From contig NSJX01000001.1 in the NCBI GenBank assembly GCA_002286715.1, positions 2,843,929-2,907,928 on the forward strand: a stretch of DNA of 64,000 nt. The letters run 5' to 3'. A program made the translations under genes and the position numbers. This document shows, in pieces, positions 17,289 through 59,248 of this stretch; position 1 is the first letter of the stretch, and each line of letters begins with the position of its first letter. The stretch comes from Dentipellis sp. KUC8613. Taxonomy: Eukaryota; Basidiomycota; Agaricomycetes; Russulales; Hericiaceae. Under the pieces are notes generated by a model that saw only the letters and a program-made list of their open reading frames with translations, ran no database searches and was not told where the DNA came from.

Positions 17289-18433
17289 ATGGATCTCGAC
17301 TTGAAAGGCGTACATGTTCTCGTCACAGGTATGTAATTTGTAACTTTTTCTTGCTCAGTCCTTTTTTCTTTCGGAACAGGCTGTTCGTCATGCTGGACCG
17401 ATTGGAATTTGGATGCTCACCGATAGGTTGAACAGGTGCGAACGGCGGAATTGGCTTCGCAGCGACGCGCACATTCCTAGGTACACATACGCGAGTGCTG
17501 GATGCTTGACTTGCCGGATTCTCCCCTCTTACGCCGCGACTCCTAGAACAGGGTGCAAATGTAACGGCGCACTTTCGCAGCAGCGATGCGAAGCTGCAGC
17601 CCCTGGCGGAGGCCTATGGACCCTCACGCATCCGTCTTGCTGGAGCCGATCTCACATCCGAAGAGGCGGTCGTGTCTCTCTTCAACACGGCAGCTCTGGA
17701 GACCAGCTTTGGCCCGGTGGAGGTAGCAATTATCAATCACGCGACATCTACAAGCGGGTGGACGGCGGTGAAGGACATCTCGCTGAAGCAGTGGGAATCG
17801 ACGATGAATGATAATCTGACGTCGTCATTTCTGGTTGCGCGTGAATACATGCGTGGACTCCAGCAGGGTGTCGCTCCGGGCCGGGTGGTGGGTACAAATC
17901 GGTTCGGACAAAGAGCCTCCATCGTTCTGGTCGGAAGTACGGCAGGGAAGTATGGTGAGGCGGGCAATGCAGACTATGCAGCTAGTAAAAGTGGTAAGCT
18001 CGTCGAATACAGAACACCACAATGGATCTAATTACTCGTCGCGCGATAGCTATCATGTACGGCTTCTTGTTGTCACTCAAGAACGAGATCGTCGCGATCG
18101 CACCTAAAGGACGTGTAAACTGCATAGCACCTGGATGGACGAGGACACCTATGGCCGAGGGGTCTCTGAAGGATCCTCTCACCGTCTATCGTGCACTTGC
18201 TACGTATGTTTCCTGTTAGCGACATAATGTAGCTATGGTTTCTGACTATCCTCTCCAGAACGCCTCTCAAGAAAGTCGCAGAGCCAGAAGACATTGCGAG
18301 CCAGATAGCAGTCATTGCTTCGACGAAGCTCTCCGGGCATGTCACAGGTCAGGTCGTGATGGTAGAGGGCGGGATGGAAGGCAGGTTACAGAATATGCCG
18401 AAGGACCTTGACCTGCCGGGAAACATCGAATAG
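17289..18433 (+). CDS. short-chain dehydrogenase/reductase (classical SDR)
   Basis: A soluble NAD(P)-dependent oxidoreductase with a Rossmann fold. Exons 17289-17328, 17436-17480, 17547-17993, 18050-18203 and 18259-18433 join in frame to 286 residues. The cofactor motif TGANGGIG (residues ~13-20) is split by the first intron. The catalytic set is visible: Ser in VLVGSTAGKYG, and YAASK (Tyr-x-x-x-Lys). The NNAG motif is replaced by NHAT (AIINHATSTSG), a conservative but notable change. The PGW motif after the active site (NCIAPGWTRTPMAEG) and the C-terminal SGHVTGQVVMVEGGM complete a classical SDR. Arg in THFRSS-like AHFRSSDAK after beta-2 suggests NADP preference (inference). Substrate unknown; resembles 3-oxoacyl-ACP reductase or sugar dehydrogenase-like members. 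Confidence 0.88.
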
Positions 18434-18847: not shown

Positions 18848-21800
18848 ATGGAAGAAGACGAGAGGTGCGTTCTCTATGAGACCTGGCTAGCCCTCGACAC
18901 GCTGACGATCCGCGGTGGCGTCTGCAGATGTATCAATCTCAGAAGTGCGTGATCATCCAGTTGTATGGACTTCGTACGCATGCTATTGAGCTAACCTGCA
19001 CACTGCGATCTTGCCAGTCGTTCGGGCCCGAGATCTGCCTTCGCCATTGCTGTGGAAGCCTGCCCTGCTGTCATTTGTCTTGGGAACGCCGGGAGGGAAG
19101 CACCTGTTTCGCACTGAGACTGTCAGCGGATCGAATCCAGTATGGAATGAGCACTTCGTCGTGAGGTACGGCCGAAGCTTTTGACTAAGAACGTTGCTTA
19201 TCGCCATCTCGTATCCAGGCCTACGAGCCTATCATCCACGATCAGACTTCAAGTCTTCCATAGCCCGAACGCCTCGGAGATGATCTTGCTGGGGGAGACA
19301 GATGTCCTTGTCGATGCCTTGTTGCGTGACGAAGTAAATGGTATGTTTTATTTATCCCGATCGAGCGACGTGTGACTGTATCACGAGTTGTTAATGGTCC
19401 ACAGATGTTCGATGTAGATTGACAAAGCCAGGACTGAAGCTCCGTCGCAATCGCGGCGAGTTGTTCATATCCGGCAATACCCTCATTAATGCGACTGAGA
19501 CACTATCATCGCAACGAAAAAGCCCATCTCCTTCTACGGGATCGGAAAGCGAGCCTGAAGTCCGTGCGCTGGGATTCGGCCCTCTCCCAGGGGGTCTCCC
19601 AACACTTTTTATGCAGTTGGATCCAGGTTCTTTACCGCCTGTCGAACCTAAATTTTCAGCGTTGACTGCGGCGCTGAATGAAGCCGACGTCAGTATGAAG
19701 GCACTGTCAACGCCTTCGTCACTCGAAAAAGCTGGCTCAGTCATGAACGACTCAGAGAGTGCCGCAAGCAGCGACTTGTTGCAAGCTACCGGCGAGGTCA
19801 TTTCTAACGTCCTGGGGAGCCTAATACATATCGGTGATGTATTCGCCGAGGTGAGGAAGTTCACCGTTATTCCGTGCACAGTATATAGATCTCTCTTTGA
19901 CGTGCAGGCTCATCCGTACGCAAAACTGGCTTGGTCGGTTCTCAGCAGCGGTTACAAGGTTCGTGAGCACATTTTGTTCAGTCGCATCCTCTTCATTGAT
20001 TATGATTGTACAGGTACTGAGGGCCCAGGTTGAACGTGATGATCGAGTACGAAGCCTCTGGTACACAGTACAGGACGTCGTCGCGTTCTTCAATGGGGTC
20101 CAAGAGCAGCCCATGAAAGCCGACTATCTCAATCAGGTAGTGACCGATGTAGTGAAACAGATTTATGAATGCTGCCAGTTCCTCAAGAGATACGCAGAGC
20201 ATGGTTTTGCAGGTATGCGAAGCCTTAATATGATCATAAGATATACTCACCAGAATCAGGACGTACTTTTCGAAATACCCTGAGTCCAAATAAAGACGAC
20301 GCTCTGCAGCTTCTGATTGACTCGTTTCAGACCTTGAAGGAAAAACTCAGTCGAGGTGTCAGTCTTGAGAATTGGAAATGTCTCAGAGCTTTGGGAGACG
20401 ATCTCGGCGAAATAAAGGACCACCGTACGTTCTTCGCGCTCGGGCAGCTCAAATTGCTGAGCTTGAATTATCGCAGTTCAAGAGCTCTGGTTATACACAC
20501 TGATTGAAGGTCAAGCAACCGTCGTCGAATGCGATACTACTCGAGGTTGCCTTCTCGGGACACGCACCAAGGTGATCGAAGATATCACAGAGTGGATCCA
20601 TGATCCTTCGCGCGGACGTGTTCTCTGGCTTTCAGGTCCCGTCGGAACGGGCAAGTCCAGTGTTGCCAACACCGTTGCTGGGCTTTTGAAGGGATTAGGC
20701 CGCCTCGGCGCAAGCTATCGGTTTGACAAACAGGTCGACCCATCGGCGTTCTTCCGCCAGATTGCATACCAGTTGGCGCGGATAGACAGGTCGGTCAAGG
20801 ACACGATGCTCTCTGTGCTGACTCAGAGAGGAGAAATTCCATCTGCGGCCCTACCTGACCAGGCAATGAGGATCATCGTTCGGCCTCTTCAATCCGTGGA
20901 TCTGGTTGGCCCCGTAGTGATTGTCATCGATGCATTGGACGAGATTAGACACCGCGACACACGTATACGGGAAGATATCCTCGCCTTCTTTTCGAACAAG
21001 GACTTCGCGCTGCCAGACTACGTGAAGATACTCATAACTAGCAGAGACGATCCCTATATTCGTCTGCATCTGCAAACCCGAGGCGGATGCGAAGCCCTCA
21101 GCCTTGATGACTACGAGGATACCCCTGCAGATATCCGCCTTTTCGTCAAACACCGTCTAAGCGAAATCCAGGCTCTCGCAAAGATCGAGGATGGCTGGCC
21201 TCCCTCGGGAGCGGACGTGAAGCTGGCCGAACGCGCAGATCGGCAGTTCCAGTGGGCGCATGTGACTTGCCAATTCATCGCCGACAGTCCCCAGTCCCGC
21301 TTGTCTTTGGTCTTGTCCGCGAAGGTTGCCACTCATGGCGGAAGTCGGCAGCTCGACGCCTTGTATGACTCTGTCATCCGATCTGCGTACGAGGCCCGCG
21401 ATCGCGACCCGAACTATCCTCTCGAATTTGCATACGTTGTAGGGTGTATTGCCGCTGGGAAGAAGCCCTTCAGACTCGATGACTTGAATGTCTTGCTCGG
21501 TCTACGCGACGATTGCTATAACGAGGTCCATCTTCCCGGCTCGGAGCCGTTCTCCATGGAGGGTGCAAGGCAGTTCATTTCATCAATCAGATCTCTTTTC
21601 TCTACGAGCTCTCCGTCTCTCGGTGCCAATGGCCCGCTGCGTTTGGTGCATACCTCGCTCTTCGAATTTCTGACGGACAAGAAACGTTGCCCGGGTTTCT
21701 GCATTGATCTGCCCTACTGGAACCTGGTGATCGCCATCCAGTGTGTGAAGACGCTCAACGAACGATTGGATGTAGAGATTTCGAACTCCGGTCAGCTGCG

Positions 21801-24800
21801 CCAGGACAGTATGGCAAAAGGACTTACGATCAGTGGTGCACTGCGCTATGCTTGCCAATTCTTCGTTCGACACATCAGCGATCTCGAGGACCGCCATGAT
21901 AATATGTTGGTGTCTCAAATGACGGTCTTTCTATCCAAGCGACTCCTAAGGTGGATCGAAACGATGACCGCACTGGGCCTCGAATGGCTGGAAAACCTAG
22001 AGATCCTAGTCACATCTTACAGCATGCCGCCGGAGTATAAACTTCTTGCTCAGACAACTACAGTAGAGGAAAAACTGGCTGCGATTGCTTCTATTGTAGG
22101 AGAAAGTGTCAAGCAGTTACCTAGCGCTGGGACGTCTGGAGACGAGCCCGACGGCCCAGAGAATTTGTCTCCTGAAACATCGATTCTCTCTGCATCTACC
22201 TATGATTACGATCCCTCAGCCCTGTACGAGTACGTGGCGCCCTTTGATTCACGTAGCGACATATTTATGGATTGGAGCTACAATCCGGAGTCCACAAACC
22301 CACGTATGCCCACACGAAGCGAGGACGTGAGTGGAGTGGAGCAGGGAGCACAGGCTGAACCGATGACGGAGATCGACGAACACCAGATGCGGACAGCACA
22401 GGGAGGAGTGCAAGGTTCAGAAAGAACGGTAGGTAGCAAGAACTTGTCGGAGCTCGAAGGTAGTCACTAATGAGATCCAGAGTGCTGCGTCCCCCGCCGC
22501 CCTTCTCGCTGCCGACATGTTTGTTCTGGATCCGTCGGTGATAGCGCGTGGGGCGGGACCCTCTTCTGTCCAAGAACCGGTAATCGAATTTGGTCCAGAA
22601 GATCTACGGCATCAATATGACAGCATTCCTGAAGGTGAAACTCCTCTGCGTAAAGCTGAGGTAGTTGACACGGAGGAGCATGCACAAGAGCCGGGGTCCA
22701 TAATCAGAATGCCGATACTCCCTCCTGGGGATAGATCCATTTCTAGAATGCAAGTCAGTGGCGAAAGTGAGTTACTCCCTTTGTGTATACGTGAGATGTT
22801 TTAAAAAGGGTCGGACACCTCCAGCGCGCAGCCCTTCTAGCGCGCAGCATACTCTGACTGGACCTCCTCCAAGCCTGACCGTGGAGTCGCACGATCTAGA
22901 TTTCGCTTTTGACGCAGATGAAACCAAATATTTGGAGAGCTTGTGGCTTGGCGAACAATCCCCCAAAACCCAGACGCCGCAGCCTGCCGCCGAACCGGAC
23001 AACTCAGAGGATGAAGCCATGATGGCTGCCAAACAAGCGGCCCGCGTCCGCTCAGAACAGGTTCCAATTTTACAGGACCGTAAGTCGTTTCCTGAAGGCT
23101 TTGACTACTTTCTCACATACCTTCGAAGCTCGTCCCCCTACCAACATCATACGTCCCCCAGGCCACCATGAGGTCCTCCAATTTTATTCTCAGACGGGTA
23201 TCTTCAGGTTCCGGGAGCAGACATCGCAGCATGGACAACAACCGGGGCTCGTGACCGATGCTGTGACTGACAACATGGAAGAACGGGATCAACGTACGGC
23301 GTCGCAATATGTAGATGAGCAAGGTGACACGGATAGCAATCGGCGTCAAGAAGAAGGTGAGCACCGTGTCTGTTCCCTATTCCTTCTCTTTTTAATGGGA
23401 CGTTTTCCGACACGGACGCTGTAGCGACTACTCTCGTCGACTCACCTGCACCCTCTTCCGACTACTCTCTTGCTTGCTCTCCAGAGAGGTCGGAAATTAT
23501 GGCACCGAGTCATTCGAAAGTCGATGCGTGGTTCAGAATGAGTAATATACTCGAAAGCCAATACTATAGATACGAAAGCGCGCAAAGGGTGCGAGGTTTG
23601 CATCACCACTCCCCTTCGCTACTGATGTCTATCACAGAGCATCGAAGCCGCCGTCACGATGGCGATAGAGGGTATCAAATTGGTCGATGGAGAGGCGTGT
23701 CGCCCAATATTTGAGGACAGCGCTTTCGTCCTGTTGGAGATCTGGTATGCTCTAGAGAAGCTCGATGTGCGTAGCAAAATTCGACTGGTTGGATTGAACT
23801 AACGAAACATGGGTGATAGGACCCTCAATACAGCTTTCTGGAGTTAGCAACACGCTGCGCGGACGTCCTGCGTGTAGCATACGAACTGTATGACCAGAGT
23901 ACCATCGTGACGAGCTCGATGACGGAGGCAGCAGACAGTCTATTTCAGTGGGTCTCTCCTTGTCTAGTATTTGCGCCCTTCGTTAATTCTGCGCAGGTGT
24001 TTCTCGCAAATCCGTGAGATGTTCATCCTCAAACGGAGACAACAGCCTTTTGTCCATTACGACCCTGGAGACGAATACATTCCATCCTGCTCCGAAAGGC
24101 TGTTGCAGATCACGCAGTCTCTCCAGGTATGTGGCATCGTCGACTACGTCTTCCACTCACTTCATCTCATAGCGTGTTGGGTGACTTCTTTGTTTTGATG
24201 CAGATTTTCACCCAGCTCCAGCGGCACGACAGATTTTCGAGCACGCGGCAAGCGCTGCTGGACATGCAAGGTCTTGGGATGTCCAATGCGGACACTCAAG
24301 AAAGACTCCGAGCGTTAGCGCGGAAGCTTCTGGCTGGCAGGGACGGCAACGGCGCGGATTCTGGCGCACTGATGGGAGGCTCTCCTGACGATGTCGCGTC
24401 AGTTTTACGCAGCGTCATGGAGTCCGAAACACAGGAGGGCATAAAACCGCGCGCAGGCGTACGAGTGATCTCCAAGCATGATGTCGACGCCATGCAGAAG
24501 ATTATGGACCATGCTGCGGATCTTTACAGAGGCACCTGGAGCTCACGCACAGTCGCCATCAGGATGCTACCGTCGTCCGCTCTGTCTCGGGATCGCTTCG
24601 AGACCGTCACCGACAAGTGGTGGAAGCTCTCCGATCCCAACGTCCTGCCGCTTCTCGGCGTATCAGACCCAACGGACCCGGACTCAGCGTACACTGTCAC
24701 CCCGTACTGCGAGCGAGGAAATCTCGTGCAATATCTCAGGAGCACGCCGGAGCTAGGCGATGCGGATATTCTGCAGATGATGACAGACATCGCGTCGGGG

Positions 24801-25465
24801 TTGGAGTACTTGCATGAGAAGGGAATCGCACATGGGAATCTTCAGGTATGTGCGAAGGTCCCTTGCTCTTCATCGCGAGTGGAGTGCTGAATCGAAGTAG
24901 GGGAAAAACGTGCTGGTAGAAAGTGACCTCAATTGTCTCATCGGGGGCTTCTTTCACAGTAGCTTCGCAAATCCCGCAGAGGCGAGCGAAGGCGAGAATT
25001 CTAGCCTCCGGTCCGGTACGTCAATTGCTATAACGCTCATTATTACCTACCCACAACGCTGATTGACTCCGGAGAAATGACCATGTGGTACTCCCCCGAG
25101 ATCTTAGCAAGCGGCGATGCATTCACGCCGCAAGGAGATATGTACGCCTTCGCAATAGTCTGTACGGAGATCTTGACGAAGGGAGTGCCGTTCTCGCCGG
25201 AGCCTTCCCCCTTGGACACAGCGCTCACCATCGTCCGTGGTACGTGACATTTTCTTCCGACAAGGCAGCGCACTTATGTTGAGCCGCGCTCGCAGGGGAA
25301 CACCGGCGCCCCGCGCTGCCACCCAGTGGCCTTTTAGACGGAGGGTTAAAGGACGTGATTGACATATGCTGGGCCGACGCTCCCGGGACACGCCCTGCCT
25401 CTGGAGAGGTTAGAAACATGCTGCGGGACATCTGGGACAAGCTGGGATACGACGGGGCCGAATAA
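18848..25465 (+). CDS. STAND/NLR-like protein: C2 - helical - NACHT - helical - pseudokinase (copy A)
   Basis: A very large, many-intron gene of roughly 1,600 residues. Exon 1 is tiny (MEEDER). Next is a C2 domain (IVRARDLPSPLLWKP, NPVWNEHFVV, STIRLQVFHSP), a linker, then the helical block that precedes NACHT in Agaricomycete STAND proteins (HPYAKLAWSVLSSGYK, QIYECCQFLKRYAEHGFAG). NACHT has Walker A GPVGTGKSS (20635-20658), Walker B VVIVIDALDE (20914-20943) and ILITSRD, then a winged-helix-like LVHTSLFEFLTD. After a Glu/Ser-rich disordered stretch comes another helical segment (LLEIWYALEKL, SERLLQITQSLQIFTQLQRH). The C-terminus is a kinase fold lacking catalysis: VAIR in place of VAIK (24552-24563), HGN in place of HRD (about 24831) and GGF in place of DFG (about 24940). 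It keeps WYSPEI and CWADAPGTRP. By analogy it should be an ATP/GTP-switched immune or heterokaryon-type receptor. No repeats (WD40, TPR, ankyrin) are present. It ends GYDGAE. Confidence 0.85.
20635..20943 (+). other. NACHT Walker A to Walker B segment, copy A
   Basis: GPVGTGKS (P-loop) to VVIVIDALDE (Walker B with the NACHT-type second acidic residue). Both are intact, so nucleotide binding and hydrolysis are expected. Confidence 0.9.
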
Positions 25466-26140
25466 GGAAGCCAGTTTCTTGATTACATCGCGGTAAGCAA
25501 TTGGAGTTGTTAGTAGTATGCACACCCGTGGTCATCGGAATCGAGTCGTACGTAGTCGCCAATTTGACCTAACGTGTACGTTAGTAGTTAGTGTCTACAC
25601 CAAAATTGTAATCACCAAGTGAGATGTACATAGCAATATTTGGTTATGTGTGCGGTACCCGGAGTAAGTAGTCATCGTTGGGCGCAGAGCAAATCGGCAA
25701 GCGATCGGCAACCATCGTCGTGCACGCGTCCCCGGTCAAAAGTACATGGATCCAAAAGCTTGTTACGACTATGTGTGGGACGGAGGTACAAGTCAAAGTC
25801 GGCGCGACCGTGCAACGGATTGACACTAAAAAAATTGAAATCCATGTTTTTCTTATCCAGCGTATGTCCGGTACCCGTGGGAAAAACGCTGCACCATATT
25901 GAAGCTCCAAGTTTCCTCGGAAGGAGTTGGAATTTCCAGCAAATTGTGAGCTGGAATCACAATATCTTCAGCTTGCTCTCAAACTTGCTATAGCACATCA
26001 GGATTCCTCAAAATCAGCAGACAAATGTCTCAAGGTAGTCAGGGCCAATGCGGGCGTCACTTGCCTTCAGTGGCTGTACCTGCGCGCCAACCGGTGTAGG
26101 GCACTGTGACTGTCCATTTCGTTGACTTTCTTACTCTTGC
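25466..26140. other. spacer between the two STAND paralogues
   Basis: About 675 bp, which must contain the 3'UTR of copy A and the promoter of copy B. Short frames only; no family recognised. Confidence 0.4.
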
Positions 26141-29100
26141 ATGGACGAGGAAGAAAGGTGCGCTCTCAGGAGGAGTTTATGCGATGGCTTATAACTTACC
26201 ATGGGTTCATCACAGAGTCATCGATCTCACAAGTGCGTATACAATCTGGTTCCAGGCACTCGATGATCTTACGATCATACCCGTGTATGCGTGTGGACCG
26301 TCCTGCCAGTCATTCGGGCCCGTGATTTGCCTCCTCCGCGACTATGGACCTCTTTACTGTCGTTTGTTTTGGTAGCGCCAGGGGGCAGAGTCTTGTTCCG
26401 TACAGACGCGGTCGGTGGGCGGAACCCAACGTGGAATGAAGTCTTCAATATCAGGTAAAGCTTCCAGTGCTTGCGGATCCGAGGAATTCTCAGCGTTATC
26501 TCTCCATCCCTTTAGGCATGCAATCCTGTCACCTACAATTCGGCTGCAAGTCTTTCATAGTCCGAACTCTTCCGAGATGGTTCTATTAGGAGAAGCGAAC
26601 GTTCTTGTCGATGCTCTGTTACGCGATGAAGTAAATGGTGTGTTCAAGTAACTATTTCGTTATGTATCCCTTGGATGAGGCTGACGATAGTGTTATCCAA
26701 CTGTAGAGATTCGGTGCAGATTGGCGAAACCGGGACTGAGGCTTCGTCGAAATCGCGGCGAGCTATTTATCTCTGGAAATGTCCGTATCAATGTAGCCGG
26801 AGTTTCCTCCCCTGAGCGCCCAAGTCTTTCTGCTTCTGGGGAATCAGAAGGCGATATACAAGCCCCTGGAGGTATGTGCACGTTCTTATGACCGCACGTA
26901 GTACGACTCTGAGAGGCTCATATTTAGCAGGCGGCGGCGCGTCATCTTTGCATTCGAGCCATCCTGCAGCGTCTGGGCTTGGGCCTCCCCCGGGCCTGTT
27001 CCAAACCCTTGCCACTCATCTAAATCCTGCGTCGTTACCATCAATCGAGTCCGATTCTGCAACGTTGTCTGTAGCACTTGGTCAAGCAGAGACCTGTGTG
27101 AGCACCCTATCAGCTCCTTCATTACTGAAAACGGCCAGTTCTTCCACGGAAGGCTCGGACAGTGGCACGAGCAGTGACTTGTTGCATACCGCCGGCGATG
27201 TCTTGTCTAATATACTCGAGAGGATAGAGCGAATTGGCGACGTATTTGCTGAGGTAAGAAATTTCCGATTACCCTTGGCGATAGCATTGGTACATAAACT
27301 ACAGGTTCATCCATACGCGAAATTAGCTTGGGTAGTTCTCAGCAGTGGCTACAAGGTTCGAGCGTCGGTTTCGTCTTTCTGCGTTCCCGTTGATAGCCTC
27401 GATTGCATAGATATTGAAGGCACAAGTAGATCGTGACGACCGAGTGCGAAACCTCTGGTGCACGGTCCAGGACGTTGTCGCATTCTTCGATGACGTAAAA
27501 GAGCAGCCCGCGAAGGCGACCTACTTACAGAAGGTAGTAGCGGACGTCGTGAAACAGATCTACGAATGCTGCCAATTCCTGAGGAAATATGCAGACCACG
27601 GGTTTGCGGGCAAGTAAAATTATCTGAGTCACTGGTAAATGTGCTCATTGGGTATAGGTCGCACTTTTCGAAATACGCTGAGCCTGCATAAGGATGATGC
27701 CTTGCAGCTTTTGATCGACTCGTTCCAAACGCTCAAGGAGCAGCTTAGCCGTGGTGTTAGTCTCGACAACTGGAAATGCCTCCGGGCCCTCGGCGACGAT
27801 CTTGGCGAAATGAAAGACCAAAGTACGTTCTGTGCCCTGACAGTTTAGGTGAACAGGATTTACTCAATTCGGTATATTGCAGTTCAAGAACTCTGGTTGT
27901 ATACGCTGATTGAAGGTCAAGCGACCATTGTTGAATGCGATACTACCCGAGGATGCCTTCCTGGGACCCGCACAAAGATGATTAACGACATTACGGGGTG
28001 GATCCACGATACGTCGCGCGGACGTGTTCTCTGGCTTTCGGGCCCTGTCGGGACCGGAAAATCGAGTGTCGCAAATAGCATTGCCGGGCTTCTGAAGGGA
28101 ATGGGTCGTCTTGGCGCTAGCTACCGATTTGACAAACAGGTCGATCCATCGGCGTTCTTCCGCCAGATTGCATACCAGCTGGCGCGGATAGACAAGTCCG
28201 TCAAGGACACCATGCTCTCTGTGCTGACTCAGAGGGGCGATATTGCGTCTGCGGCCCTACCTGACCAGGCGATGAGGATTGTTGTACGGCCTCTTCATAC
28301 TGTGGATCTTGTTGGCCCCGTGGTGATTGTCATCGACGCATTGGATGAGATCAGGCACCGCGATTCACGCATCCGAGACGACATCCTTGCCTTCTTCTCG
28401 AACAAAGACTTCGCTCTCCCGGACTATGTGAAGATTCTCATCACCAGCCGGGACAACCCTCACGTACGTTTGCATCTGCAGACACGAGGTGGGTACGAAA
28501 CTCTCAGCATCGACGACTACGACGACACTCCCGCCGATATCTGCCTTTTTGTCCGGCGCCGCCTGAGCGAGATTAAAACCCTCGCAGGTATCGCACGTGG
28601 TTGGCCTCCCGTCGGGGCAGACCGAAAGCTGGCAGAACGAGCTGGGCGACAATTCCAATGGGCATCTATAACTTGCCAGTTCATTGCGGAGAGTCCTCGC
28701 TCTCGGTTGGCTTTAGTGTTGTCTTCCAATGCCATCACGCACGATGGAACACGTCAGCTCGATGCGTTGTACAACTCGATTATACAATCCGCGTACGAAG
28801 CCAGGGGCTCTGACCGAAGCTACGTATCGGAATTTAGATACGTTGTCGGGTGCATCACTGCCGGAAAAATCCCTTTCAGAACGGATGACTTGAACAGTTT
28901 GCTTGATCTAGAGGACGACTGCTATAGCCAAGTCCAGCTGCCTGATCGGAAATCGTTCTATATGGAGGGCGCAGCACAGCTTCTTTCATCGGTCCGCCCC
29001 CTATTCTCCTCGACCACCACGACTCATGGGCGTCCCGGCCCGCTGCATCTGGTGCACACCTCCCTGTTCGAGTTCCTAACGGACAGCGACCGTTGCGCGA

Positions 29101-32100
29101 ACTTTTATATCGATCTGTCTTACTGGAATCTGGTGCTCGCTATCCAGTGTGTGAAGACGCTTAACGTGGAACTTGATGTGGAGGACAGCACTGGTCAGTC
29201 AAGGCAGAGCAATATTCTGACAGCTCGACCAGTCAGCGGGGCGTTACGCTATGCTTGTCAATTCTTTGCGCGACACATCAGCGAGCTTGAGAACCGTCAA
29301 CACTACATGCTCATGTCTCAAATGAATCTCTTTCTATCCAAGAGATTGTTCAGGTGGATCGAATTGATGCTTTCGCTCGGCTTCGAATGGATGGAAAGCT
29401 TAAATATCCTCACTGCGTCTTATGACATGCCCGCGGAATACGAGCTTATCGCCAAGACGACCACCGCGGAGGAAAAAATAGCCGTGATAGCCTCTATTGT
29501 GGGCGAAGGTGTCAAACACTTGATTGACACTTCGCTAATTGCCGACGAGGAGGGCAAAAAGGCTAAACGGTATCATCTCGACTTGGAAGCGGAAGTAGAT
29601 TCAGCTTCTGACGAGGAAACGGGGATAGAGGGGCGTGATGAATCAGTGAGAACTGTAGGTGGCATTACAATTTTTTGACTGGCGGGGCGGAGGCTGATTG
29701 TATCTTGAAGATTGTTCCCAGCACGTCGTTCGACACAACATTCACCAAGGAGTCAACCGACGATTCATCAGCATCGCGGGTTCCTCTTCGGCCCAGCCGT
29801 CCTGCTTTGTCCAGTGACATGGACTCGCCGATGCCAATGCGGATTGGTCGCGTGTATTTCGCGACCTATCATCATTCGCCTACGAATTCGGATACATATC
29901 CGGAGGACGACCGTAGAAGCGAAGCGAACGTGGGGCGTAGGGGGCAGGAGGCCCGAGAAAAGCCTGTCCAGGATGCTCAGGAGCAGCCGGCCGTAGTGAG
30001 CGGCTCCACCTTCCCAGATTTTAGACAAACGCTGATTGATCACAGAAAGCTGTACATTCTCAACTTTCACGAGGAGAGCTTAGTGTGTCTTCCCGGCCTT
30101 TACTGCCTCTTCATCCTCCAGACTTGCGGCGTACATCTTCGCCCCCGTTGGAGGATGCATGGATACCCCCTCCCGATTGGAGAGTTAACACGGCTTTTGA
30201 AGACACATTCCAGTATGAGGATGCATTCTTGATTGATCCGCAACAGCCACTGTCCGAGGCAGACGATGCAGAGCATCAACTAGTATCGGACTCCAAATCG
30301 GCTAAACATGGCACCACGAGACCGAGGCCTGTAGTACGCAAAGAATGTAAGTGTCAAGGCACTTTGTTGGTTCCTTTTCGCGCGAAGCGGCTTGATCTAA
30401 ATAATCTCCACAGCGCAAGCCCATGACTCTACAAGCGACATCGAGTCTGGGGCCGAATCTCCCTCACGTCTGACCCTGGAGGAAGAGGATCTGCTACTAT
30501 ATGGCCCGACGGAACGCGAAGAACCAGAGGAAACCATGTCTGAAGTTCTACCGAGCAGCACAGCAGAGCAAGGACAGAGTATATCAAGTCGGAAGCAAGG
30601 AGTGGCTCCGCTTTATAGAAGCCTGAGAGAAAGCTTTACCAGCTACCAGCCTGAGGATGATGGTCAGCGTTCGTTTCCCTCATTTGCTCGAACTGTAGTC
30701 CGTGGGAAATTTTCTGACGAGTGCGACATTTTTTCATAGATCTTTTTGACTTGGGTGAATCGTCTGGTGGTGCTTGGGAAGAGCCAACGCAGACAACTGA
30801 TTCAAAGCCGCAATTCACATTGCAAGGGTCAGGACCCAACAAACTCTTCGCTTGGTTCAGAACGGGGAGAATCCCCAAAAGCCAGCATGTTAAGTACGCA
30901 AATGCACAAAAGGTATGGGTCGCGCCTTACCCTTCCGGCACGCCGCTCATAACTGTCACAGAATATCGAAGAGGTTATCACGCTCGCAATGGAGAATATT
31001 GAAAAAGACGATAAACAAGGCTCCAAGCCCGCTATATTCTCGGACGCAGCTATTCATTTAATGGAAATCTGGGATGCATTGAGGCGGCTTGACGTGAGTT
31101 TTCACAATTTTGGTGGCATACGGAGCCAAATTGACGAGTCATTTACCATAGGATCCACGTTATAAATATTTAGAGCTGACGATGCGTTGCACGGACGTGC
31201 TACAGGTAGCGTGCGAGCTGTATGATCAAGGACCCACCGTCACCGATATCATGGAGGAAGCCGCCGAGAGCCTACTGGAGTGAGCGGCAATGTCTTTATC
31301 TCGAGCCCCCTTCCTATACTCATGCAACGCAGATGTTTTTGGCACATCCGGGAACTGCTAGCAAAGGAGAGGAAAGCGACTGCCACAAGGCGGTCTTCCA
31401 GATACAATCAAACGGAGAGACTGATCATACCTTTTTCTGAGAGGCTGTCGCAGATTATGCAGTCGTTCCAGGTGTGTGGTGCCGTCCATCACGTTTTTCG
31501 CTTCATTGATTGTATGACTTCCTCACGCTGGTATAGATCTCCACCCAGCTTCAGCGGCACGAGGTTTTTCTCGGCACGCGGCAGACACTGCTGGACCTCC
31601 AGGATCTGAAAGCGTCGGACGAAGACACCCAAGAGCGAGTCCGAGCACTGGCGGAGAGGCTTCTAGCCGGCAGGAACGACGACGACAATCCGGGCTTGAT
31701 AACTGAACCCTCTTCCGACGAGATAGCGTCGATCCTACGCAGTGTCACGAAGGGCGGCGAAGCAACAGTAAGCACAACGAAGAATATCAAAGCGCATGCA
31801 GGTGTGCGGGTTATCGCCAAGGGTAGCATCGGCGCCATCCACAGCATTGCGGGGGACACAATGGACCTTCACAAGGGCATCTGGGACTCACGCACAGTTG
31901 CCATCAGGATGTTCTTACCCTCCACTAGTATGTCCCGGGACCGCTTCAAGCTGATCACCGACAAGTGGTGGAAGCTCTCCGACCCCAACATCCTCCCGCT
32001 CCTCGGCGTGTCGGACCCAGCCGACGCGGATAGCATGTACACCATCACTCCGTACTGCGAGCAGGGGAACCTCGTGCAGTATCTTAGGAGTACACCTGAT

Positions 32101-32860
32101 CTAAACGAGGCGGATATGCTACAGATGATGATAGACATTGCGTCCGGGGTGGAGTACTTGCATGAGAAGGGAATCGCACACGGAAACATTCAGGTATGCA
32201 CGCTAGTGCTGTCGTTGTCGTCGAGAATGAGATACTAAGCCCGCGCAGGGAGTGAATATACTGGTAGACGACGACCTCAACTGTCTAATCGGCGGCTTCT
32301 ACCACAGCAGCCTTGCAATCTCAGCAGAGGCAAGCGAAAGAGAGAAGCACGGACTGGTTGAAAGTACGTTCGCTGCTTTAGCACTCATCATTTCTTCGCG
32401 TCATTGACTGGCTCCGAAGGGATGGCCATGTGGTACTCCCCCGAGGTCATAAGGAGCGCCGTCCGGTACACGTCGCAAGGAGACGTGTACTCCTTCGCCA
32501 TAGTCCGCGCGGAGATCCTGACCGAGGGGGCGCCGTTCTCGCCGGACCCATTGGACCCGTCTGAATCCCCCCTGCTCAGGTTGCTCGACAGAATGCTTTC
32601 CGTTGTCCGTAGTACGTATCAGCTTCTTCCGACAAGTTATAGGGTTATGCTGAGCCGTGCTTGCAGGAGAGGACCAGCGCCCCGTGTTGCCGCGCACGGC
32701 TCTTCTCGACGGAGGGCTAAAGGACGTGATTGACGCGTGCTGGGCCGAGGCTCCCGAGGCACGTCCTACCTCCGGAGAGGCGAGAAACATGCTGCGGGAC
32801 GTCTGGGACAAGCTGGGGTACGATGATGCCGAATGGGGAGAACGGGTGCTGGATTTTTGA
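26141..32860 (+). CDS. STAND/NLR-like protein: C2 - helical - NACHT - helical - pseudokinase (copy B)
   Basis: Tandem paralogue of the preceding gene with the same domain order and matching intron positions, including the tiny first exon (MDEEER) and the intron after RT in the disordered region. C2: IIRARDLPPPRLWTS, NPTWNEVFNIR, TIRLQVFHSPN. Pre-NACHT helices: HPYAKLAWVVLSSGYK, QIYECCQFLRKYADHGFAG. NACHT: Walker A GPVGTGKSS (28041-28064), Walker B VVIVIDALDE (28320-28349). The disordered linker differs strongly in sequence and length from copy A. The pseudokinase shows the same three losses: VAIR, AHGNIQ and LIGGFY (about 32178 and 32288). The protein ends with eight extra residues (WGERVLDF). 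No frameshift or stop was found with the chosen introns, so both copies appear functional. Exact exon borders in the disordered region are provisional. Confidence 0.85.
28041..28349 (+). other. NACHT Walker A to Walker B segment, copy B
   Basis: Intact P-loop and Walker B. The nucleotide sequence between them is strikingly close to copy A, with runs of more than 30 identical bases. Confidence 0.9.
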
Positions 32861-33385: not shown

Positions 33386-34706
33386 TCAGTCGTCGTCCTC
33401 ACGGACGTCCTTCTCTATTGACGGGGCTGCGCGGTCAGCAACGAAGATGTTGCCGTTTTTGACGTTCATGAAAGTGTACTGTGGAACGAGTTAGTCAAGC
33501 CCAGGAGTGCCGAAAATAGGGAGAAAACACACTTCTACGAGCTCTGCACCCACACCACGGTTGTAGTTCGCGTACACCAGGTTGATCTCCCGACTCGTCG
33601 CACGCATGCCCGCACGCTCTAGACGTTCCCAAAGAGCCAACAGATCGTAGAAGGGACGATCCCACAGGTGCAGCTCGATGATCATCTGGCCGACTGGAAG
33701 CGTGCCGTCCTCTGCCGCGCCGAGGAACGACCGCAGCGTGTCAAACTCCCACCCCTCGATGTCCACCTTGAGCACGTCGATATGCATGTGTCCGTTCATG
33801 CGCATGAGCGACTGGATCGTGTACATCTTCGGCTCGTCACCCGGCGCGAGCTGCTCGCGGCCCGCGACGACCCACGGCTTGAAGTGCGTGCGGGCCTTGA
33901 GGCTGCGGTCGTCCCAGTACTCGCGCTCCTCGCCCGCGGTGCCCGTCTCGGTGTCCTCGATCCCCGGCGCGCTGGAGTAGAACTCGGGAAGCAGGGGGTC
34001 CGCAAAGAGCCGGAAGAACTCGCTCGCGTGCGGGCGTGTGACCTCGTCGCCGAAGCCTTTCGTCGTGAAGTCGTATGCCCAGACCTGGCAGTGTCGCGTA
34101 CGTGCGAGCAGCTCGGCCTCGAAGGATGCGGAAGCGGCGCTGCCGATGGAGTAGACGATGCAGTCGGGTTTCTCTTGCAGACGGTCAATACCACAGAGCC
34201 ATTTGCCGCCATCTCCGAGGGCGCCGATGCGCTCGACGGTGTGCGGGCATGAGAACGCGGGAGGGAAGAAGTCCCCTTCACAGCTGCTGTCAGCTCGAGC
34301 AACGGCTATGAAGACCGGTATACGTACACACTGTGTAGGCGGGCCATGGAGCCTTGTCAGGCGGGAAGCTGTGAAGCGTAAGCGCAGTCAGTTATCGCAA
34401 GCGGGAACCGTCCTACATCCTGTATACTCACGACACGATTTCCCTTGGATTGGGCCCAAACTTTCTGATGAGCCCCTCTCTCCGTTTGACCATCTTCTGG
34501 TATACCCTCTCTGACCTCTTCACGCGTGCCGTCAAGCTGTTGTCGACCTGAACGATGCCATTGTGCAGCGCGTCCGGCGCGACGTATGTCGACTCCGAGT
34601 AGGGGTACGGCGAACCAGGAAGGAGGAAAAAGAAGGCGGTTACGAGAAGAACACCAAGTATTATGGTGTACCGTGGGTGGCGGGCGGGAATGAGGGCCAT
34701 GGCCAT
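33386..34706 (-). CDS. METTL24-like methyltransferase-domain protein, type II membrane anchor
   Basis: Four exons (34706-34432, 34368-34330, 34286-33533, 33478-33386) join in frame to 386 residues. A single N-terminal transmembrane segment (TIILGVLLVTAFFFLLPG, residues ~13-30) with a short cytoplasmic tail suggests a Golgi/ER type II protein. The lumenal domain has ALGDGGKWLCG, IVYSIGSAASASFEAELL, CQVWAYDFTTKGF and HIDVLKVDIEGWEFDTLRSF, the pattern of the METTL24/FkbM-like SAM-dependent methyltransferase family (PF13383). A cluster of Cys residues (SCEGDFF, FSCPH, WLCG, PDCIV, RHCQV) is compatible with lumenal disulfides. It ends in an acidic EKDVREDDD tail. Substrate unknown; methylation of a secretory glycan or protein is possible but speculative. 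Confidence 0.8.
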
Positions 34707-36040: not shown

Positions 36041-37138
36041 CTACACAAGCCGCTTGGGCTCCTCGTTCTGCGCCGGCTCCACCTTAGCCTCGACCACCTT
36101 GGCCTCCTCCTTCACCTCCTCCTTTGCATTCTCCAACACCGGCTCTGCCTTGCTCTCCACCACGCTGGCCACCTCCTTTGCCTTTGCCTCGACCTTCTCC
36201 ACGACCTCCTTCGCCTTCGTCTCTACCTTCGCCTCGAGCACCTTCACCTCCGCAAGCACCTCCTTCGAGGCCTCGCTGACCTTCCCCTCCGCCTCTAGTG
36301 CCGCCACCCGCCCCTTCCCAATCGCCTCGCCAACCTTCAGCCCCGTCGTCTCCTGCACGCGCCTCAGCGCATGGCCCACCGTCTCGCCCGCGTGCGCGCG
36401 GCCCTGCTCCCACGCCTCCTGCGCGCGCGCGACCGTCATGGCGAAGTGCGCGCGGCCGATCGCGTGCTTCTCCGCGAGGCCGGGCGTGTAGCGCTCCTCG
36501 AGCTCGCCCGCGTACGTGGCGACGTTGTGCGACGTCTTCGGGATGAACTGCTGCGCGGCGAGCACGAAGAGCGTCGGCGGCGCGAGGATGCGCAAAGGCA
36601 GCCCGCGCGTGCGCGTGAGGATGGAGCCGGAGAGCGCGGCGATGCCCGCGTAGAGGACGCCGGGCGTGAGGGGCTCGTCGGGTGCGACGAGGGACTTGAC
36701 GCGGCCTGTGGTGGGTAAAGTTTTATGATTAGAAGTTTTGCAAAGGAAAGGTGGGGGTAGGATACGCACTTTCTACGGCCTGCTCGATCCCAATCCACTT
36801 CCCGATGACACCCTGCACCTGCGAATGCGTGTCATTGAACACCCGCGTCGCGGCCCGTCGCGCAATGCCAATTTGCCTTTCAAGTTCGGTGGGCGACTCG
36901 ACAACGATGATGTCCTGGTCGGGTGCTGGGTAGATGGAGAGCTGTATTTGGGTCAGCACATGTGCCGCATGGGTAGACCGGCAAGATAATACCTTTTCGC
37001 GCTCAGAGTCGGGCAACGACACGGCGACGGCTGTCGCAGCCGCCAGGAGCGTTCTTCGGGGCTACACGTCACAGCAAAGCAGATCAGACGAATGCTTTAA
37101 TAGAACAGGAAATTACATACCATGCGAGCCCAGGACAT
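36041..37138 (-). CDS. MICOS complex subunit, MIC26/MIC27 (apolipoprotein O) family
   Basis: A mitochondrial inner-membrane protein that shapes cristae junctions within the MICOS complex. Exons 37138-37121, 37061-36993, 36941-36770 and 36705-36041 join to 307 residues. The N-terminus (MSWARMPRRTLLAAATAVAV) is basic and amphipathic, fitting a presequence. KLSIYPAPDQDIIVVESPTE is the family's conserved start of the mature domain. GVLYAGIAALSGSILTRTRG and PLRILAPPTLFVLAAQQFIP are the two hydrophobic segments linked by the R-G-rich turn typical of the family. The C-terminal ~110 residues are a Lys/Glu/Ala-rich helix (repeats such as KAKEVVEKVEAKAKEV), probably a coiled coil, and longer than in yeast homologues. 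Exon 1 encodes just six residues. Confidence 0.85.
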
Positions 37139-49984: not shown

Positions 49985-51301
49985 TCAAGCCGTGTCGACC
50001 TTCGCGACCATCTTCGCTCCGCTGGACTGCAATTTGGCCACCTTCTCTAACGCGGCCGGAATCCCAGCCAACCCGCCCGGCACAGCCTCCCACTTGTTCG
50101 GCTGTCAGACTTTCGTCAGCACCACAAAGTTTCAAAAACGAAGAGACGAAAGCACGCACCCGCAGCCTCCCATCCGCCAAAAACGCCTCCAAACCCGCAT
50201 ACATCTTATCCGCCCACTCACGCCCCGCCGCCTGCTCGTCCATATAATTCACCGCGCCCCACACGAACGCAATGCGGCGCCCGTTGTCGAGCACGACATT
50301 CGGCTCGCCCACGACGGGCGCGCGCACGAGCGCGAGCGTGCCGCCCGCGCCGGTGAGCCCCCACGCCGCGCGCTGCGTCTCCTCGTTCGCGATGGCGTCG
50401 AACACGAGCGGGAACGGCGCGCTCGTGATCTTGGCGACGGCCTCGGGCAGCGCGGCGTACGGCGTCGTGTGGTAGTCGATGAGGTGCGTCGCCCCTGCTG
50501 CGCGGACGTATGCCTCGTTGTGTGCGGAGGCTGTTGCGATGATCGGGTTGAAGCCGGAGAGCTTGAGGAACTGCAGCGCTGTGAGGAGGTTAGTGTGGCC
50601 GAAGTTGGAGAGGGAAGATGGCGTGCGCACCGAATTGCCCGACCGAGCTAGACCCGCCGAAGACGATCACAGGCTGGTCTTTGTACTTTCCCAGGCCCTC
50701 TTCCGTCCACGGAGCGGTGAGTGCCGCGCCGCCGCGAGGACCGTGTGGACCGTAGAGTGCGAGTCCAGCGGTCATGAGGCAGAGGGGCATGGTCGAAGCC
50801 GCCTCCAAGGAAATCGCGGCGGGGATCTAGTTCGCGGACGGTCATCACGACTATGGATTGGTAACCGGAGATGGGTTGGCATACCTTGTAAGTCCGCTTC
50901 GCGTTTATGAGTACATACTGCTGGAATGTGCCGTGGTCGAGGGTAAACTTGAGGCGTTCGAATGACCTGCCACGCCAGAGAGCACAGTCGTCAGTCCCCA
51001 ATTCCCTGCTACGCTGATAAGCGGAGAGTAATTGAACTCACACTCGGTCGTCCTTCGCCGGCCCGGTGCCCTCTACGCCCTCCCCGAGAGCCTCGATAGT
51101 TCCCGCAGCATCACATCCTGCAATCGCAGGATACTCCGTGATCGCAAACCCATAGAGGCCAATCGCATAGTCGATCGGGTTCAAAGCGGTCGCAGCGAGC
51201 TTGACGAGGACCTCTCCCGGACCCGGCGTCGGAATCGGGCGTTCCACGACCGTAAAGGGAGCGCCCTTGGCGGTAAGAATCAGGGCTTTCTGTGAGGCCA
51301 T
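49985..51301 (-). CDS. zinc-free MDR enoyl-reductase-like oxidoreductase, tandem copy 1
   Basis: A medium-chain dehydrogenase/reductase of the quinone-oxidoreductase / trans-enoyl-reductase type, expected to reduce activated double bonds with NADPH in the cytosol. Exons 51301-51042, 50966-50885, 50826-50631, 50578-50160 and 50101-49985 join to 357 residues. The N-terminal GroES-like domain (MASQKALILTAKGAPFTVVE, LNPIDYAIGLYGF, PAIAGCDAAGTIEALGEGV) lacks the zinc-ligand Cys and GHE motif of alcohol dehydrogenases. The Rossmann part has [20 protein letters not shown] (nucleotide loop) and [20 protein letters not shown]. It ends with the family C-terminus NKWEAVPGGLAG, then AKMVAKVDTA. All five intra-window copies share these blocks. 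A TATA-like box lies ~80 bp upstream. Confidence 0.9.
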
Positions 51302-51380
51302 GGTTCAAGAGTGTGTTGTTGGTGTGATGGATGGGTTGATGAACTCGGATTTGGGTGGCAAATTGGTGAGATGCAAGGGC

Positions 51381-51388
51381 GTTATAAA
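51381..51388 (-). promoter_or_regulatory. TATA-like box of MDR copy 1
   Basis: tttataac on the minus strand about 80 bp upstream of the ATG. Copies 2 and 3 have closely similar sequence (gttata followed by agg or ggc on the plus strand) at related positions. Confidence 0.5.
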
Positions 51389-52004
51389 GGCTCGCACGGC
51401 TGGAGGAATCCATGTCGTAAACGATACATCCGCCTCAGGGGTAGGAACGGATGCGGAGTAGATGTGGCCGGACTGCGTCCATCGAGCATCATGCATCATG
51501 GATTCTGAGCACTGGCCGGAGGATTGCGTATACTCTGCGGCTGTTAGGACACCGCGGGAGTGCGTCGCCGTCGAGCTGATGAATAAGCGATTGACTAACC
51601 AGTCTGCAGTAACAATAGTGCTAGACACGCATAGAGGATGACTGGATAGATGACATGTTGATATGAGGGCGTTCAATATTCGGAGCGGATGTCCTCTGTA
51701 TAGATATCAACACCAGGACAAGACAGTTCGAGGCGCAGGGCGACGAGAGCCTCAACAGGATCGAGATGTGGCGGCGGCGCGGTACTGAGTCGCGGCAAGG
51801 TGCGCACCGACAACATGGCCCTGTTTTCTACACTTGCCCGCTTTGCCGTAATCTCTCAGATCTAGCAAAACGTATACCGGAAACCTTGCCTGTGCGGCGA
51901 GAAAATATTCTGCCCACTCTTAGGAGGCACCACTGTCTGATATCTAGCGGCATGAATTTATAATTACACGAGCTCTTCGGATACTGGCTTCGGCGGTCTG
52001 AAGC
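51389..52004. other. intergenic spacer between MDR copies 1 and 2
   Basis: About 600 bp, no gene or repeat recognised. Confidence 0.4.
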
Positions 52005-53286
52005 TCAAACAGGTTCGTCGACCCTCGCAACCATTTTCGCCCCGCTCACCTGCAACTTGACCACCTTCTCTAACGCTTCCGAAATCCCACCCAATTCTCC
52101 GCTCACGCTCTGCCATCGATTTGGCTACCCGACCCAACCCAACAGAAACCCAATCAACCCTCTTGCTATTCCTAGAAAAGAGAAGATATATCACACACCT
52201 TTACTCGGCCATCCAAAATATACTCCTGCAATCCCGCGTACATTCCATCCGCCCACTTGCGCCCTGCCTCCTCTTCATCCATGAAATTCACCGCAGGCCA
52301 CACATACGCGATCCGCCGGCCACCCTCTAGTTCCACACCCGCCTCGCCCACAACCGGCTGGCGCACCATGACAAGAGCACCTCCTGGCGCAGTGAGCTCC
52401 CATGCGGCCCGCTGCGTATCATCGTGCGCAATGGCGTCGAAGACAATGGGCAGCGGAGTGCTCGTGATGTGCGCGACGGCGCCGGCCAGTGCGTCGTACG
52501 GCGTCGTATGGTAGTCGATGAGATGTGTCGCGCCCGCTACACGGACGTACGCCTCATTGTGCGCTGACGCGGTCGCGATAATCGGGTTGAACCCGGAGAG
52601 CTTGAGCATTTGGAGCGCGAACTGCCCGACAGAGCCCGACCCGCCGATGACGAGCGCGGGCTGATCCTTGTATTTTCCCAGTCCACCTTCTTGCCAGGGC
52701 GCTGTGAGCGCCACGCCGCCGCGCGGGGCGTAGGGGGCGTAGAGCCCGATTGCTGCCGTTGTGAGGCAGAGAGGGAAAGTGGCGGCTTGTTCGAAGGACA
52801 GAGTATCCGGGATCTAGGGATGGTTTATTGATTTTGAAGGTCGCTCCGTAACATGATTATAGGTACGAAAGAATAGCGTTACTTTGTAAGTGCGCTTCGC
52901 ATTTATGAGGGCATATTGCTGAAACGTCCCGTAGTCAGACGCGAACTTGAGGCGTTCAAATAATCTGCAATTGGTGAAACTCCCAATCTATTCTAGTCGG
53001 TAGGGAACCATACGAGCTGTACTCACATGCTATCTCCTTTTTGCAACTTGTCACTATCTACGCCCTCTCCGAGCGCCTCGACAGTCCCTGCACCGTCAAT
53101 TCCGAGGACGGCCGGAAACACATCGAGCCTGAATCCCTGAACGCCCATTTTGTGGTCGATTGGATTCAGCGCGGCAGCAGCCATCTTGACAAGGACATCT
53201 CCTGGAATGGGTGAAGGGATCGGACGCGTGATTACTTTGAAAGGGGCACCTTTGGTTTCGACAAGCAACGCCTTCTGGGTGGCCAT
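52005..53286 (-). CDS. zinc-free MDR enoyl-reductase-like oxidoreductase, tandem copy 2
   Basis: Paralogue of copy 1. Exons 53286-53027, 52964-52883, 52813-52199 and 52124-52005 join to 358 residues. The intron that splits GGSSSVGQF from ALQFLKL in copies 1, 4 and 5 is cleanly absent: the 615-nt exon 3 equals the sum of exons 3 and 4 of copy 1 (196+419). The nucleotide loop reads VIGGSGSVGQFALQMLKLSG. Other blocks: [80 protein letters not shown]. The C-terminus is NRWQSVSGELGGI, then AKMVARVDEPV. No disabling mutation. Donor after exon 2 is gtaacg, a slightly weaker but acceptable site. Confidence 0.9.
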
Positions 53287-53334
53287 GGCTGAATGTTGTG
53301 ACTGATGAAACTGGAACGAAAGATAAGCAGGGGT

Positions 53335-53340
53335 GTTATA
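53335..53340 (-). promoter_or_regulatory. TATA-like box of MDR copy 2
   Basis: tataac on the minus strand, about 50 bp upstream of the ATG. Confidence 0.45.
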
Positions 53341-57303: not shown

Positions 57304-57354
57304 GGTCGACTACGGGTCTACTGTTGGGAAGTGCGTGATCTGGATGTTCAGAGC

Positions 57355-57360
57355 GTTATA
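57355..57360 (-). promoter_or_regulatory. TATA-like box of MDR copy 3
   Basis: tataac on the minus strand, about 52 bp upstream of the ATG, in the same local context (gcgttata-agg) as copy 1. Confidence 0.45.
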
Positions 57361-59212: not shown

Positions 59213-59248
59213 GGTGGAGATGTGGAAGCCACCAGGCGGGCGGCATAC

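What the first reader, a model, noticed from the sequence alone, without database searches (positions are those of the whole stretch)
18848..32860. Tandem pair of C2-NACHT-pseudokinase receptors
Two adjacent same-strand genes encode C2, helical, NACHT, disordered, helical and kinase-fold domains in one polypeptide, with no WD40, TPR or ankyrin repeats. C2-NACHT proteins are familiar in Agaricomycetes. A C-terminal kinase-fold tail, in the position usually taken by ligand-sensing repeats, is to my knowledge unusual. Both copies appear intact, suggesting a functioning paralogous pair, possibly an incompatibility or immune sensor system that senses through the pseudokinase or uses it as an effector. 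The architecture is seen; the role is inferred.
Basis: partly seen in the sequence, partly recalled or inferred. Interest (0 to 1): 0.85.

Follow-up and report, generated by a model that had tools for sequence, protein, structure and literature searches.

The report
Immune receptors with built-in MLKL-like pseudokinase
Two neighbouring genes of a wood-decay mushroom encode predicted immune receptors whose sensing end is taken by a catalytically dead relative of cell-death-type kinases that the same fungus also makes as separate proteins, which suggests that the receptor guards or is switched by a necroptosis-like pathway.

Summary
Genes A (18848-25465, 20 exons, 1831 aa) and B (26141-32860, 21 exons, 1846 aa) of Dentipellis sp. 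KUC8613 (Russulales, not Polyporales) are modelled as C2 - helical - NACHT - linker - helical - pseudokinase proteins. The C-terminal helical domain is homologous to the MLKL_N-like bundle of standalone bundle-plus-kinase proteins of the same genome: hhalign probability 98.9 (at most 1.9 in 30 column shuffles) and seven shared intron positions. In 6 of 6 fused proteins HRD became H[G/R]N and DFG became GF-x, as in animal MLKL; the standalone kinases mostly keep both. Two more copies (C, D) and a broken fifth lie in this genome; Dentipellis fragilis and Hericium alpestre have deposited one-chain relatives. The deposited annotation splits A and truncates B, but in D only a 56-nt intron separates NACHT from the module. 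Best reading: a fungal NLR with an integrated MLKL-like pseudokinase as sensor or switch; executioner is the main rival; no transcript or functional data. C-terminal kinases in fungal NLRs are already published (CHK2-like, Sordariales), so this is a new variant of a known kind.

The parts
18848..25465 (+). Gene A, 20 exons, 1831 aa: C2 - helical - NACHT - linker - MLKL_N-like helical - pseudokinase
   Evidence: Hand-made splice model without internal stop; Pfam
26141..32860 (+). Gene B, 21 exons, 1846 aa, same architecture
   Evidence: Hand-made splice model without internal stop (the first attempt started one base late); Pfam
18848..19484 (+). A: C2 domain exons (aa 1-128)
   Evidence: PF00168 E 2.5e-8 at aa 9-100; mapping
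19656..20535 (+). A: pre-NACHT helical domain (aa 186-408)
   Evidence: A/B 73% identical, dN/dS 0.10; no Pfam match; Goodbye-like only by analogy with PMC9815663
20536..22116 (+). A: NACHT (P-loop GPVGTGKS 20635-20658; Walker B VVIVIDALDE 20914-20943) and the helical region after it
   Evidence: PF24883 NPHP3_N E 3.6e-22; mapping
22117..23525 (+). A: low-conservation linker (aa 936-1318)
   Evidence: 25% A/B identity; least certain exons
23526..24299 (+). A: MLKL_N-like helical domain (aa 1319-1500)
   Evidence: hhalign to the standalone family, probability 98.9; shared introns; mapping
24450..25462 (+). A: pseudokinase (aa 1551-1831); VAIR 24549-24566, HGNLQ 24831-24845, GGFFHS 24943-24960
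   Evidence: PF07714 E 7e-31; AlphaFold2 model of P0027, pLDDT 81; mapping
26141..26786 (+). B: C2 domain exons (aa 1-127)
   Evidence: PF00168 E 3.5e-7; mapping
27050..27941 (+). B: pre-NACHT helical domain (aa 196-421)
   Evidence: alignment to A; mapping
27942..29522 (+). B: NACHT (P-loop 28041-28064; Walker B 28320-28349) and the helical region after it
   Evidence: PF24883 E 4.1e-21; mapping
29523..30849 (+). B: low-conservation linker (aa 949-1307)
30850..31632 (+). B: MLKL_N-like helical domain (aa 1308-1493)
31801..32857 (+). B: pseudokinase (aa 1550-1846); VAIR 31894-31911, HGNIQ 32179-32193, GGFYHS 32291-32308
   Evidence: PF07714 E 2.5e-32; motifs; mapping

Best explanation
Genes A and B encode NLR-type receptors in which the C-terminal sensor position is taken by an integrated MLKL-like module (MLKL_N-like helical bundle plus pseudokinase) that shares descent, introns included, with the standalone bundle-plus-kinase proteins which this fungus still carries. 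Shown by sequence: architecture of the gene models, homology of the module, loss of the two catalytic aspartates, purifying selection, several paralogs. Inferred: at rest the pseudokinase module holds the NACHT domain inactive; when the module is bound, modified or phosphorylated, either by a nonself factor that normally attacks the standalone kinases (decoy) or by those kinases themselves (receiver, as MLKL receives RIPK3), the NACHT domain oligomerises and the N-terminal C2/helical part acts at membranes to trigger cell death or heterokaryon rejection.
For: Module homology: hhalign of 6 fused against 8 standalone helical domains, probability 98.9, score 123.6, over 157 columns, against a maximum score of 23 and probability of 1.9 in 30 column shuffles. 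Seven intron positions of equal phase are shared by 4 of 4 own-genome fused models and by 4 to 6 of 6 standalone models. MLKL_N (PF22215) matches 8 of 8 standalone bundles at E 4.3e-7 to 0.033, 2 of 8 over the curated cut-off. Fused and standalone kinases form one clade, 100/99, apart from four kinase domains of three other proteins; the fused ones group at 84/87, which is under the tool's strong-support mark. HRD to H[G/R]N and DFG to GF-x in 6 of 6 fused; standalone keep HGD in 7 of 7 readable and DFG in 7 of 8. dN/dS of A against B 0.30 in the pseudokinase, 0.125 in NACHT. Three of three scanned other NLRs of this genome carry WD40 there. The extension before the bundle core is shorter in 6 of 6 fused (23-34 against 44-45 residues) with lower peak 19-residue hydropathy (-0.30 to 0.89 against 1.11 to 1.65).
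Against: No functional or expression data. The fused helical domains themselves give no MLKL_N match (0 of 6); the link runs through the standalone family, 6 of 8 of which are under the MLKL_N cut-off. The fused module is only 34-36% identical to its best standalone hits in the database search (P0001, P0002), low for a mimic of a present-day kinase. The first structure job failed (pLDDT 31.6), so the helical fold is not modelled. The VAIK lysine is kept in 4 of 6 fused copies. Mean hydropathy of the extension in A and D (0.82, 0.84) is within the standalone range (0.53-1.31); only the peak value and length separate the groups fully. The tail shows no dN/dS above 1 as a diversifying sensor might (one pair only).
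Confidence: 0.5

Rival explanations
1. Integrated executioner: the C-terminal bundle is the killing part. NACHT oligomerisation gathers the MLKL-like modules, which permeabilise the membrane as MLKL does; the pseudokinase is the latch.
For: Bundle homologous to the MLKL_N-like family; pseudokinase substitutions resemble MLKL's (PMC12463104 and PMC6013482, passages); purifying selection.
Against: Effector domains of fungal NLRs are described as N-terminal (PMC4986451, PMC9815663, passages), where C2 and a helical domain already are; the extension before the bundle is shortened in 6 of 6 fused copies and its peak hydropathy is lower.
Confidence: 0.22
2. In A and B the kinase part is a separate neighbouring gene, so there is no single chain.
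For: The deposited annotation gives P0017 (1146 aa, no kinase) and P0027 (338 aa, kinase-like) for A, and P0019 (1024 aa, no kinase, no C2) for B. A has a Met at aa 1310, just before the module.
Against: P0017 and P0019 end by reading through my introns 10 (A) and 11 (B), and the conserved helical exons of A lie in neither P0017 nor P0027. In gene D only a 56-nt intron lies between the NACHT exon and the exon that starts the module; D is deposited as one 1601-aa chain, and so are the D. fragilis and H. alpestre relatives. B has no Met at the place of A's.
Confidence: 0.1
3. The receptors use the pseudokinase as a plain scaffold or in a signalling role unrelated to immunity and cell death.
For: No functional data were found; kinase folds are common interaction platforms (general knowledge).
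Against: NACHT with a C2 N-terminus, several paralogs and a broken copy fit fungal NLR behaviour; family link to MLKL_N.
Confidence: 0.13

Closest known systems
C2 / Goodbye-like NACHT NLRs of Agaricomycetes (PMC9815663, passages read; WD40-tailed relatives P0022-P0026)
   Same: C2 N-terminus reported there as an Agaricomycetes double architecture; the five relatives match residues 1-935 of A at 24-26% identity over 51-76% of that stretch
   Different: The five relatives carry WD40 or beta-propeller Pfam matches; here an MLKL-like module stands after NACHT. The pre-NACHT domain of A gave no Pfam match, so the Goodbye-like label is by analogy
Sordariales NLRs with a PKinase domain, CHK2/PRD-4-like (PMC12258605, passages and section 20 read)
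   Same: Kinase domain C-terminal in nine of 12; proposed integrated decoy copied from a host kinase
   Different: Other kinase family and another phylum; no bundle mentioned with it in the part read; the source there is a single-copy core gene
Fungal HELL/MLKL_N-like proteins with kinase or pseudokinase domain (PMC12881547, passages and section 18 read)
   Same: Bundle together with a kinase domain; the review says this recalls the MLKL architecture
   Different: No NACHT mentioned with them; the own-genome standalone ones keep HGD and mostly DFG
Animal MLKL (PMC12463104, PMC6013482, passages read)
   Same: Bundle plus pseudokinase; DFG replaced by GFE; HRD replaced by HRN or, in human by one paper, HGK (the two papers differ on human); lysine kept
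   Different: No NACHT or C2 (general knowledge); here the module is at the end of a receptor; fused bundles give no direct MLKL_N match
Plant NLRs with integrated kinase domains (recalled, and mentioned in PMC12258605)
   Same: Host kinase domain fused to an NLR
   Different: Plant NB-ARC receptors; presumably independent origin (inference)

Membership tests
Fungal NLR / STAND receptor | Central NACHT-type P-loop ATPase with Walker A and B | tested here: met
   NPHP3_N E 3.6e-22 and 4.1e-21; GPVGTGKS and VVIVIDALDE present; PF05729 NACHT itself is under its cut-off
Fungal NLR / STAND receptor | N-terminal effector or signalling domain | tested here: met
   C2 by Pfam, listed among N-terminal NLR classes in PMC4986451
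Fungal NLR / STAND receptor | C-terminal superstructure-forming repeats | tested here: not met
   No WD40, TPR, ANK or HEAT family at E <= 0.5; so it is a non-canonical NLR, not a canonical one
MLKL-like protein | MLKL_N-type four-helix bundle before the kinase | tested here: inconclusive
   Profile homology to standalone bundles that match MLKL_N, but 0 of 6 fused match it directly and no usable fold model
MLKL-like protein | Kinase fold with catalytic aspartates lost | tested here: met
MLKL-like protein | Membrane permeabilisation after phosphorylation | not testable with these tools
   needs an experiment
NLR with integrated domain | Integrated domain homologous to a separate host protein | tested here: met
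   Six standalone relatives modelled in the same genome, shared introns, common clade
NLR with integrated domain | Integrated domain binds or is modified by a nonself factor | not testable with these tools
   needs an experiment
Goodbye-like pre-NACHT domain | Match to a Goodbye or NACHT_N profile | tested here: inconclusive
   No family at all for A, none of these for P0021 and P0022 (E up to 10); hhalign to the standalone bundles 0.7%

The most novel reading that the evidence does not exclude
These mushrooms run a kinase-controlled, necroptosis-like pathway made of standalone bundle-plus-kinase proteins, and an NLR family has taken in a copy of that kinase, lost its catalysis by the same kind of replacements seen in animal MLKL (DFG to GF-x, HRD to HxN), and now uses it to sense attack on, or signal from, the pathway: a direct physical join of NLR and MLKL-type systems in one chain.
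Probability: 0.35. Interest if true: 0.82.

Novelty: new variant of a known kind. Interest (0 to 1): 0.62.

Why it matters
In the reviews and surveys that I read in part, fungal NLRs and MLKL-type bundles are linked by N-terminal effector domains or by amyloid motifs. Here a whole MLKL-like module, catalytically dead and with its introns, is joined to the C terminus of an NLR, while relatives with intact catalytic motifs remain in the genome. If the module is a sensor, the separate kinases are candidate guarded targets or partners, which makes the open question of what basidiomycete NLRs sense testable in a small gene set. The like replacement of DFG by GF-x in fungal and animal pseudokinases of similar layout is also a case for comparing how such switches evolve.

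Tried and rejected
PDB sequence profiles of the bundles found nothing meaningful: best E 0.27 and 0.13. Searching the own genome with MLKL_N gave 0 matches, but that search also rang in 0 of 14 control genomes, and the exons are short. AlphaFold2 of P0002 with a two-row alignment failed, pLDDT 31.6, so no fold search was run on it. The pre-NACHT helical domain is not detectably a second bundle of this kind (hhalign 0.7% and 0.2%). No TTAGGG or CCCTAA was found in the last 1354 bases of the contig, so a subtelomeric claim was dropped. Fold searches of the pseudokinase list ordinary tyrosine-kinase-type kinases; MLKL is not among the rows shown, which says nothing either way. The NACHT tree of six proteins is little resolved and was not used. 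The C-terminal query did not return P0018, P0020 or P0021, which the N-terminal query did: kinase words crowd the capped candidate list (7991 scored), so the taxonomic range given here is a lower bound.

Rows dropped or limited: of 16 hits only P0001 and P0002 were used as standalone relatives, P0003 only as outgroup and as a row of alignment A4; of 18, P0027 is the window's own kinase part, P0028 and P0029 served as outgroups, and eight others as rows of A4 only. Further outgroups named in the script did not enter the tree. L062b lacks the HGDLK stretch because of my splicing script, so it is not counted there. B and the script (stopped by an error) were redone. Of 25 NPHP3_N places in the genome (24 over the cut-off) only four outside the A-D set were read downstream and three scanned; the fourth holds masked bases.

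Full report
What is there. The window lies near the end of a 2.93-Mb contig of a 34.1-Mb genome. A deposited protein, P0017, is 100% identical to gene A over the 935 residues searched and names the organism as Dentipellis sp. KUC8613, family Hericiaceae, order Russulales; the contig length given with it (2,937,239) differs slightly from that of the held copy (2,929,353). I built splice models by hand from the raw sequence. Gene A has 20 exons at 18848-25465 and codes for 1831 aa; gene B has 21 exons at 26141-32860 and codes for 1846 aa. Neither has an internal stop, and 675 bases separate them. Pfam finds C2, NPHP3_N and PK_Tyr_Ser-Thr in both and no repeat family at E <= 0.5. The proteins are 60% identical over 1762 aligned codons; dN/dS is 0.05 in C2, 0.10 in the pre-NACHT helical part, 0.125 in NACHT and after, 0.49 in the linker and 0.30 in the pseudokinase; dS is saturated or nearly so in several segments and could not be computed for the helical module, so the values are rough.

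The second helical domain. Profile comparison of six fused proteins (A, B, C, D, P0018, P0021) with eight standalone proteins (P0001, P0002 and six own-genome loci) aligns 157 columns with probability 98.9 and score 123.6; 30 column-shuffled controls reached at most score 23 and probability 1.9. The standalone helical domains match Pfam MLKL_N in 8 of 8 cases, E 4.3e-7 to 0.033, two of the eight over the curated cut-off. The fused ones do not match it directly, 0 of 6. Introns support the relation: seven positions of equal phase lie in the module of 4 of 4 own-genome fused models. In the six standalone models they occur in 5 (the sixth model starts there), 6, 6, 4, 6, 6 and 6; the fifth is displaced in L062b, whose model lacks the HGDLK stretch, and the sixth is two residues off in L065a and one residue off in A and B. 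So the tail is a two-domain module that shares descent with the standalone proteins at the level of genomic DNA. The kinase parts of fused and standalone proteins form one clade (100/99) against four kinase domains of three other proteins, and the fused ones group together (84/87 with outgroups; 99/98 without). A single fusion is likely but not proved.

One chain or two. The deposited models split A into P0017 (1146 aa, ending by read-through of my intron 10) and P0027 (338 aa, starting at aa 1494), with the conserved helical exons in neither; P0019 for B starts and ends inside my introns and has no kinase. I saw no deposited kinase part for B in the three searches. Against a real split: paralog D, deposited as one 1601-aa chain (P0020), has only a 56-nt intron between its NACHT exon and the exon that carries the start of the module, and P0018 (Dentipellis fragilis, 1849 aa) and P0021 (Hericium alpestre, 1414 aa) are also deposited as one chain with C2, NPHP3_N and kinase. 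P0018's last part looks like run-on into a neighbour (by eye). For A and B themselves only a transcript can decide.

How many and where. On the same contig lie A, B, C (about 2910188-2916106, start codon not modelled) and D (about 2922056-2927861), and on contig C143 a fifth copy whose 3' half matches on the other strand. In the genome 24 of 25 NPHP3_N matches are over the cut-off; neighbouring ones may belong to one gene. Of four NLRs outside the A-D set that were read downstream, three were scanned and all three carry WD40 repeats there. The nearest non-Hericiaceae relatives in the protein search, P0022-P0026, carry WD40 or beta-propeller Pfam matches. The protein search scores a capped candidate list and missed known members once (against 14), so the family may be wider than Hericiaceae.

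Mechanism. Shown: architecture of the models, shared descent of the module, loss of catalytic residues, constraint. Inferred: the module sits where relatives have their repeats, and its putative membrane-active extension is reduced, so I take it as sensor or switch, either a decoy for factors that hit the standalone kinases or a receiver of their signal. An identity of 34-36% to P0001 and P0002 speaks against a close mimic of a present-day kinase and leaves the receiver idea open. The executioner reading is not excluded.

Against the literature. C2 plus Goodbye-like N-termini in Agaricomycetes and basidiomycete MLKL-like domains are described in PMC9815663 (passages); C2 as an NLR N-terminus in a few basidiomycetes and PKinase as an N-terminal class in PMC4986451 (passages); C-terminal PKinase in nine of 12 Sordariales NLRs as possible decoys in PMC12258605 (passages and section 20); HELL domains joined to kinase or pseudokinase in PMC12881547 (passages and section 18); PMC10197012 was seen in passages. 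In the rows listed by my nine paper searches (most lists were cut short) I saw no title or abstract start on an NLR with a C-terminal bundle plus pseudokinase; supplementary tables, subscription journals and preprints could not be read. Hence: new variant of a known kind.

Noticed in passing
window 49993-61532: Five tandem copies, about 2 to 4 kb apart, of what looks like a zinc-binding dehydrogenase gene (ADH_zinc_N on the - strand at 57875-58705, E 6.4e-11, the one copy scanned; repeat copies 60-81% identical).
   Followed up: partly
window 33491-34387: Methyltransf_22 / FkbM-type methyltransferase on the - strand directly after gene B.
   Followed up: no
window 17510-18031: Short-chain dehydrogenase exon upstream of gene A.
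   Followed up: no
window 36041-36772: ApoO-family match on the - strand.
   Followed up: no
L061 (C143:61000-70500): Broken fifth C2-NACHT copy; its NACHT 3' half matches on the opposite strand a few kb away.
   Followed up: partly
G000:C1:2919439-2919618 (-): Orphan kinase C-lobe match between copies C and D.
   Followed up: no
window 24450-25462 versus 31801-32857: Synonymous divergence between A and B is lower in the pseudokinase (pS 0.45) than in NACHT and after (0.62) or the helical module (0.76), possibly gene conversion of the tail; the core of NACHT is also well conserved at third positions.
   Followed up: partly
P0020 (gene D), C terminus: Acidic EEYTGEEY-type repeats follow the pseudokinase in copy D; A and B end without them.
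   Followed up: no
window 19018-19340: The C2 domain seems to lack the usual aspartates of the calcium loops (motif recalled, read by eye, no call), so calcium-independent binding is possible.
   Followed up: no
L063, P0001, P0002: These standalone bundle-plus-kinase proteins carry a long conserved region after the kinase that I did not identify.
   Followed up: no
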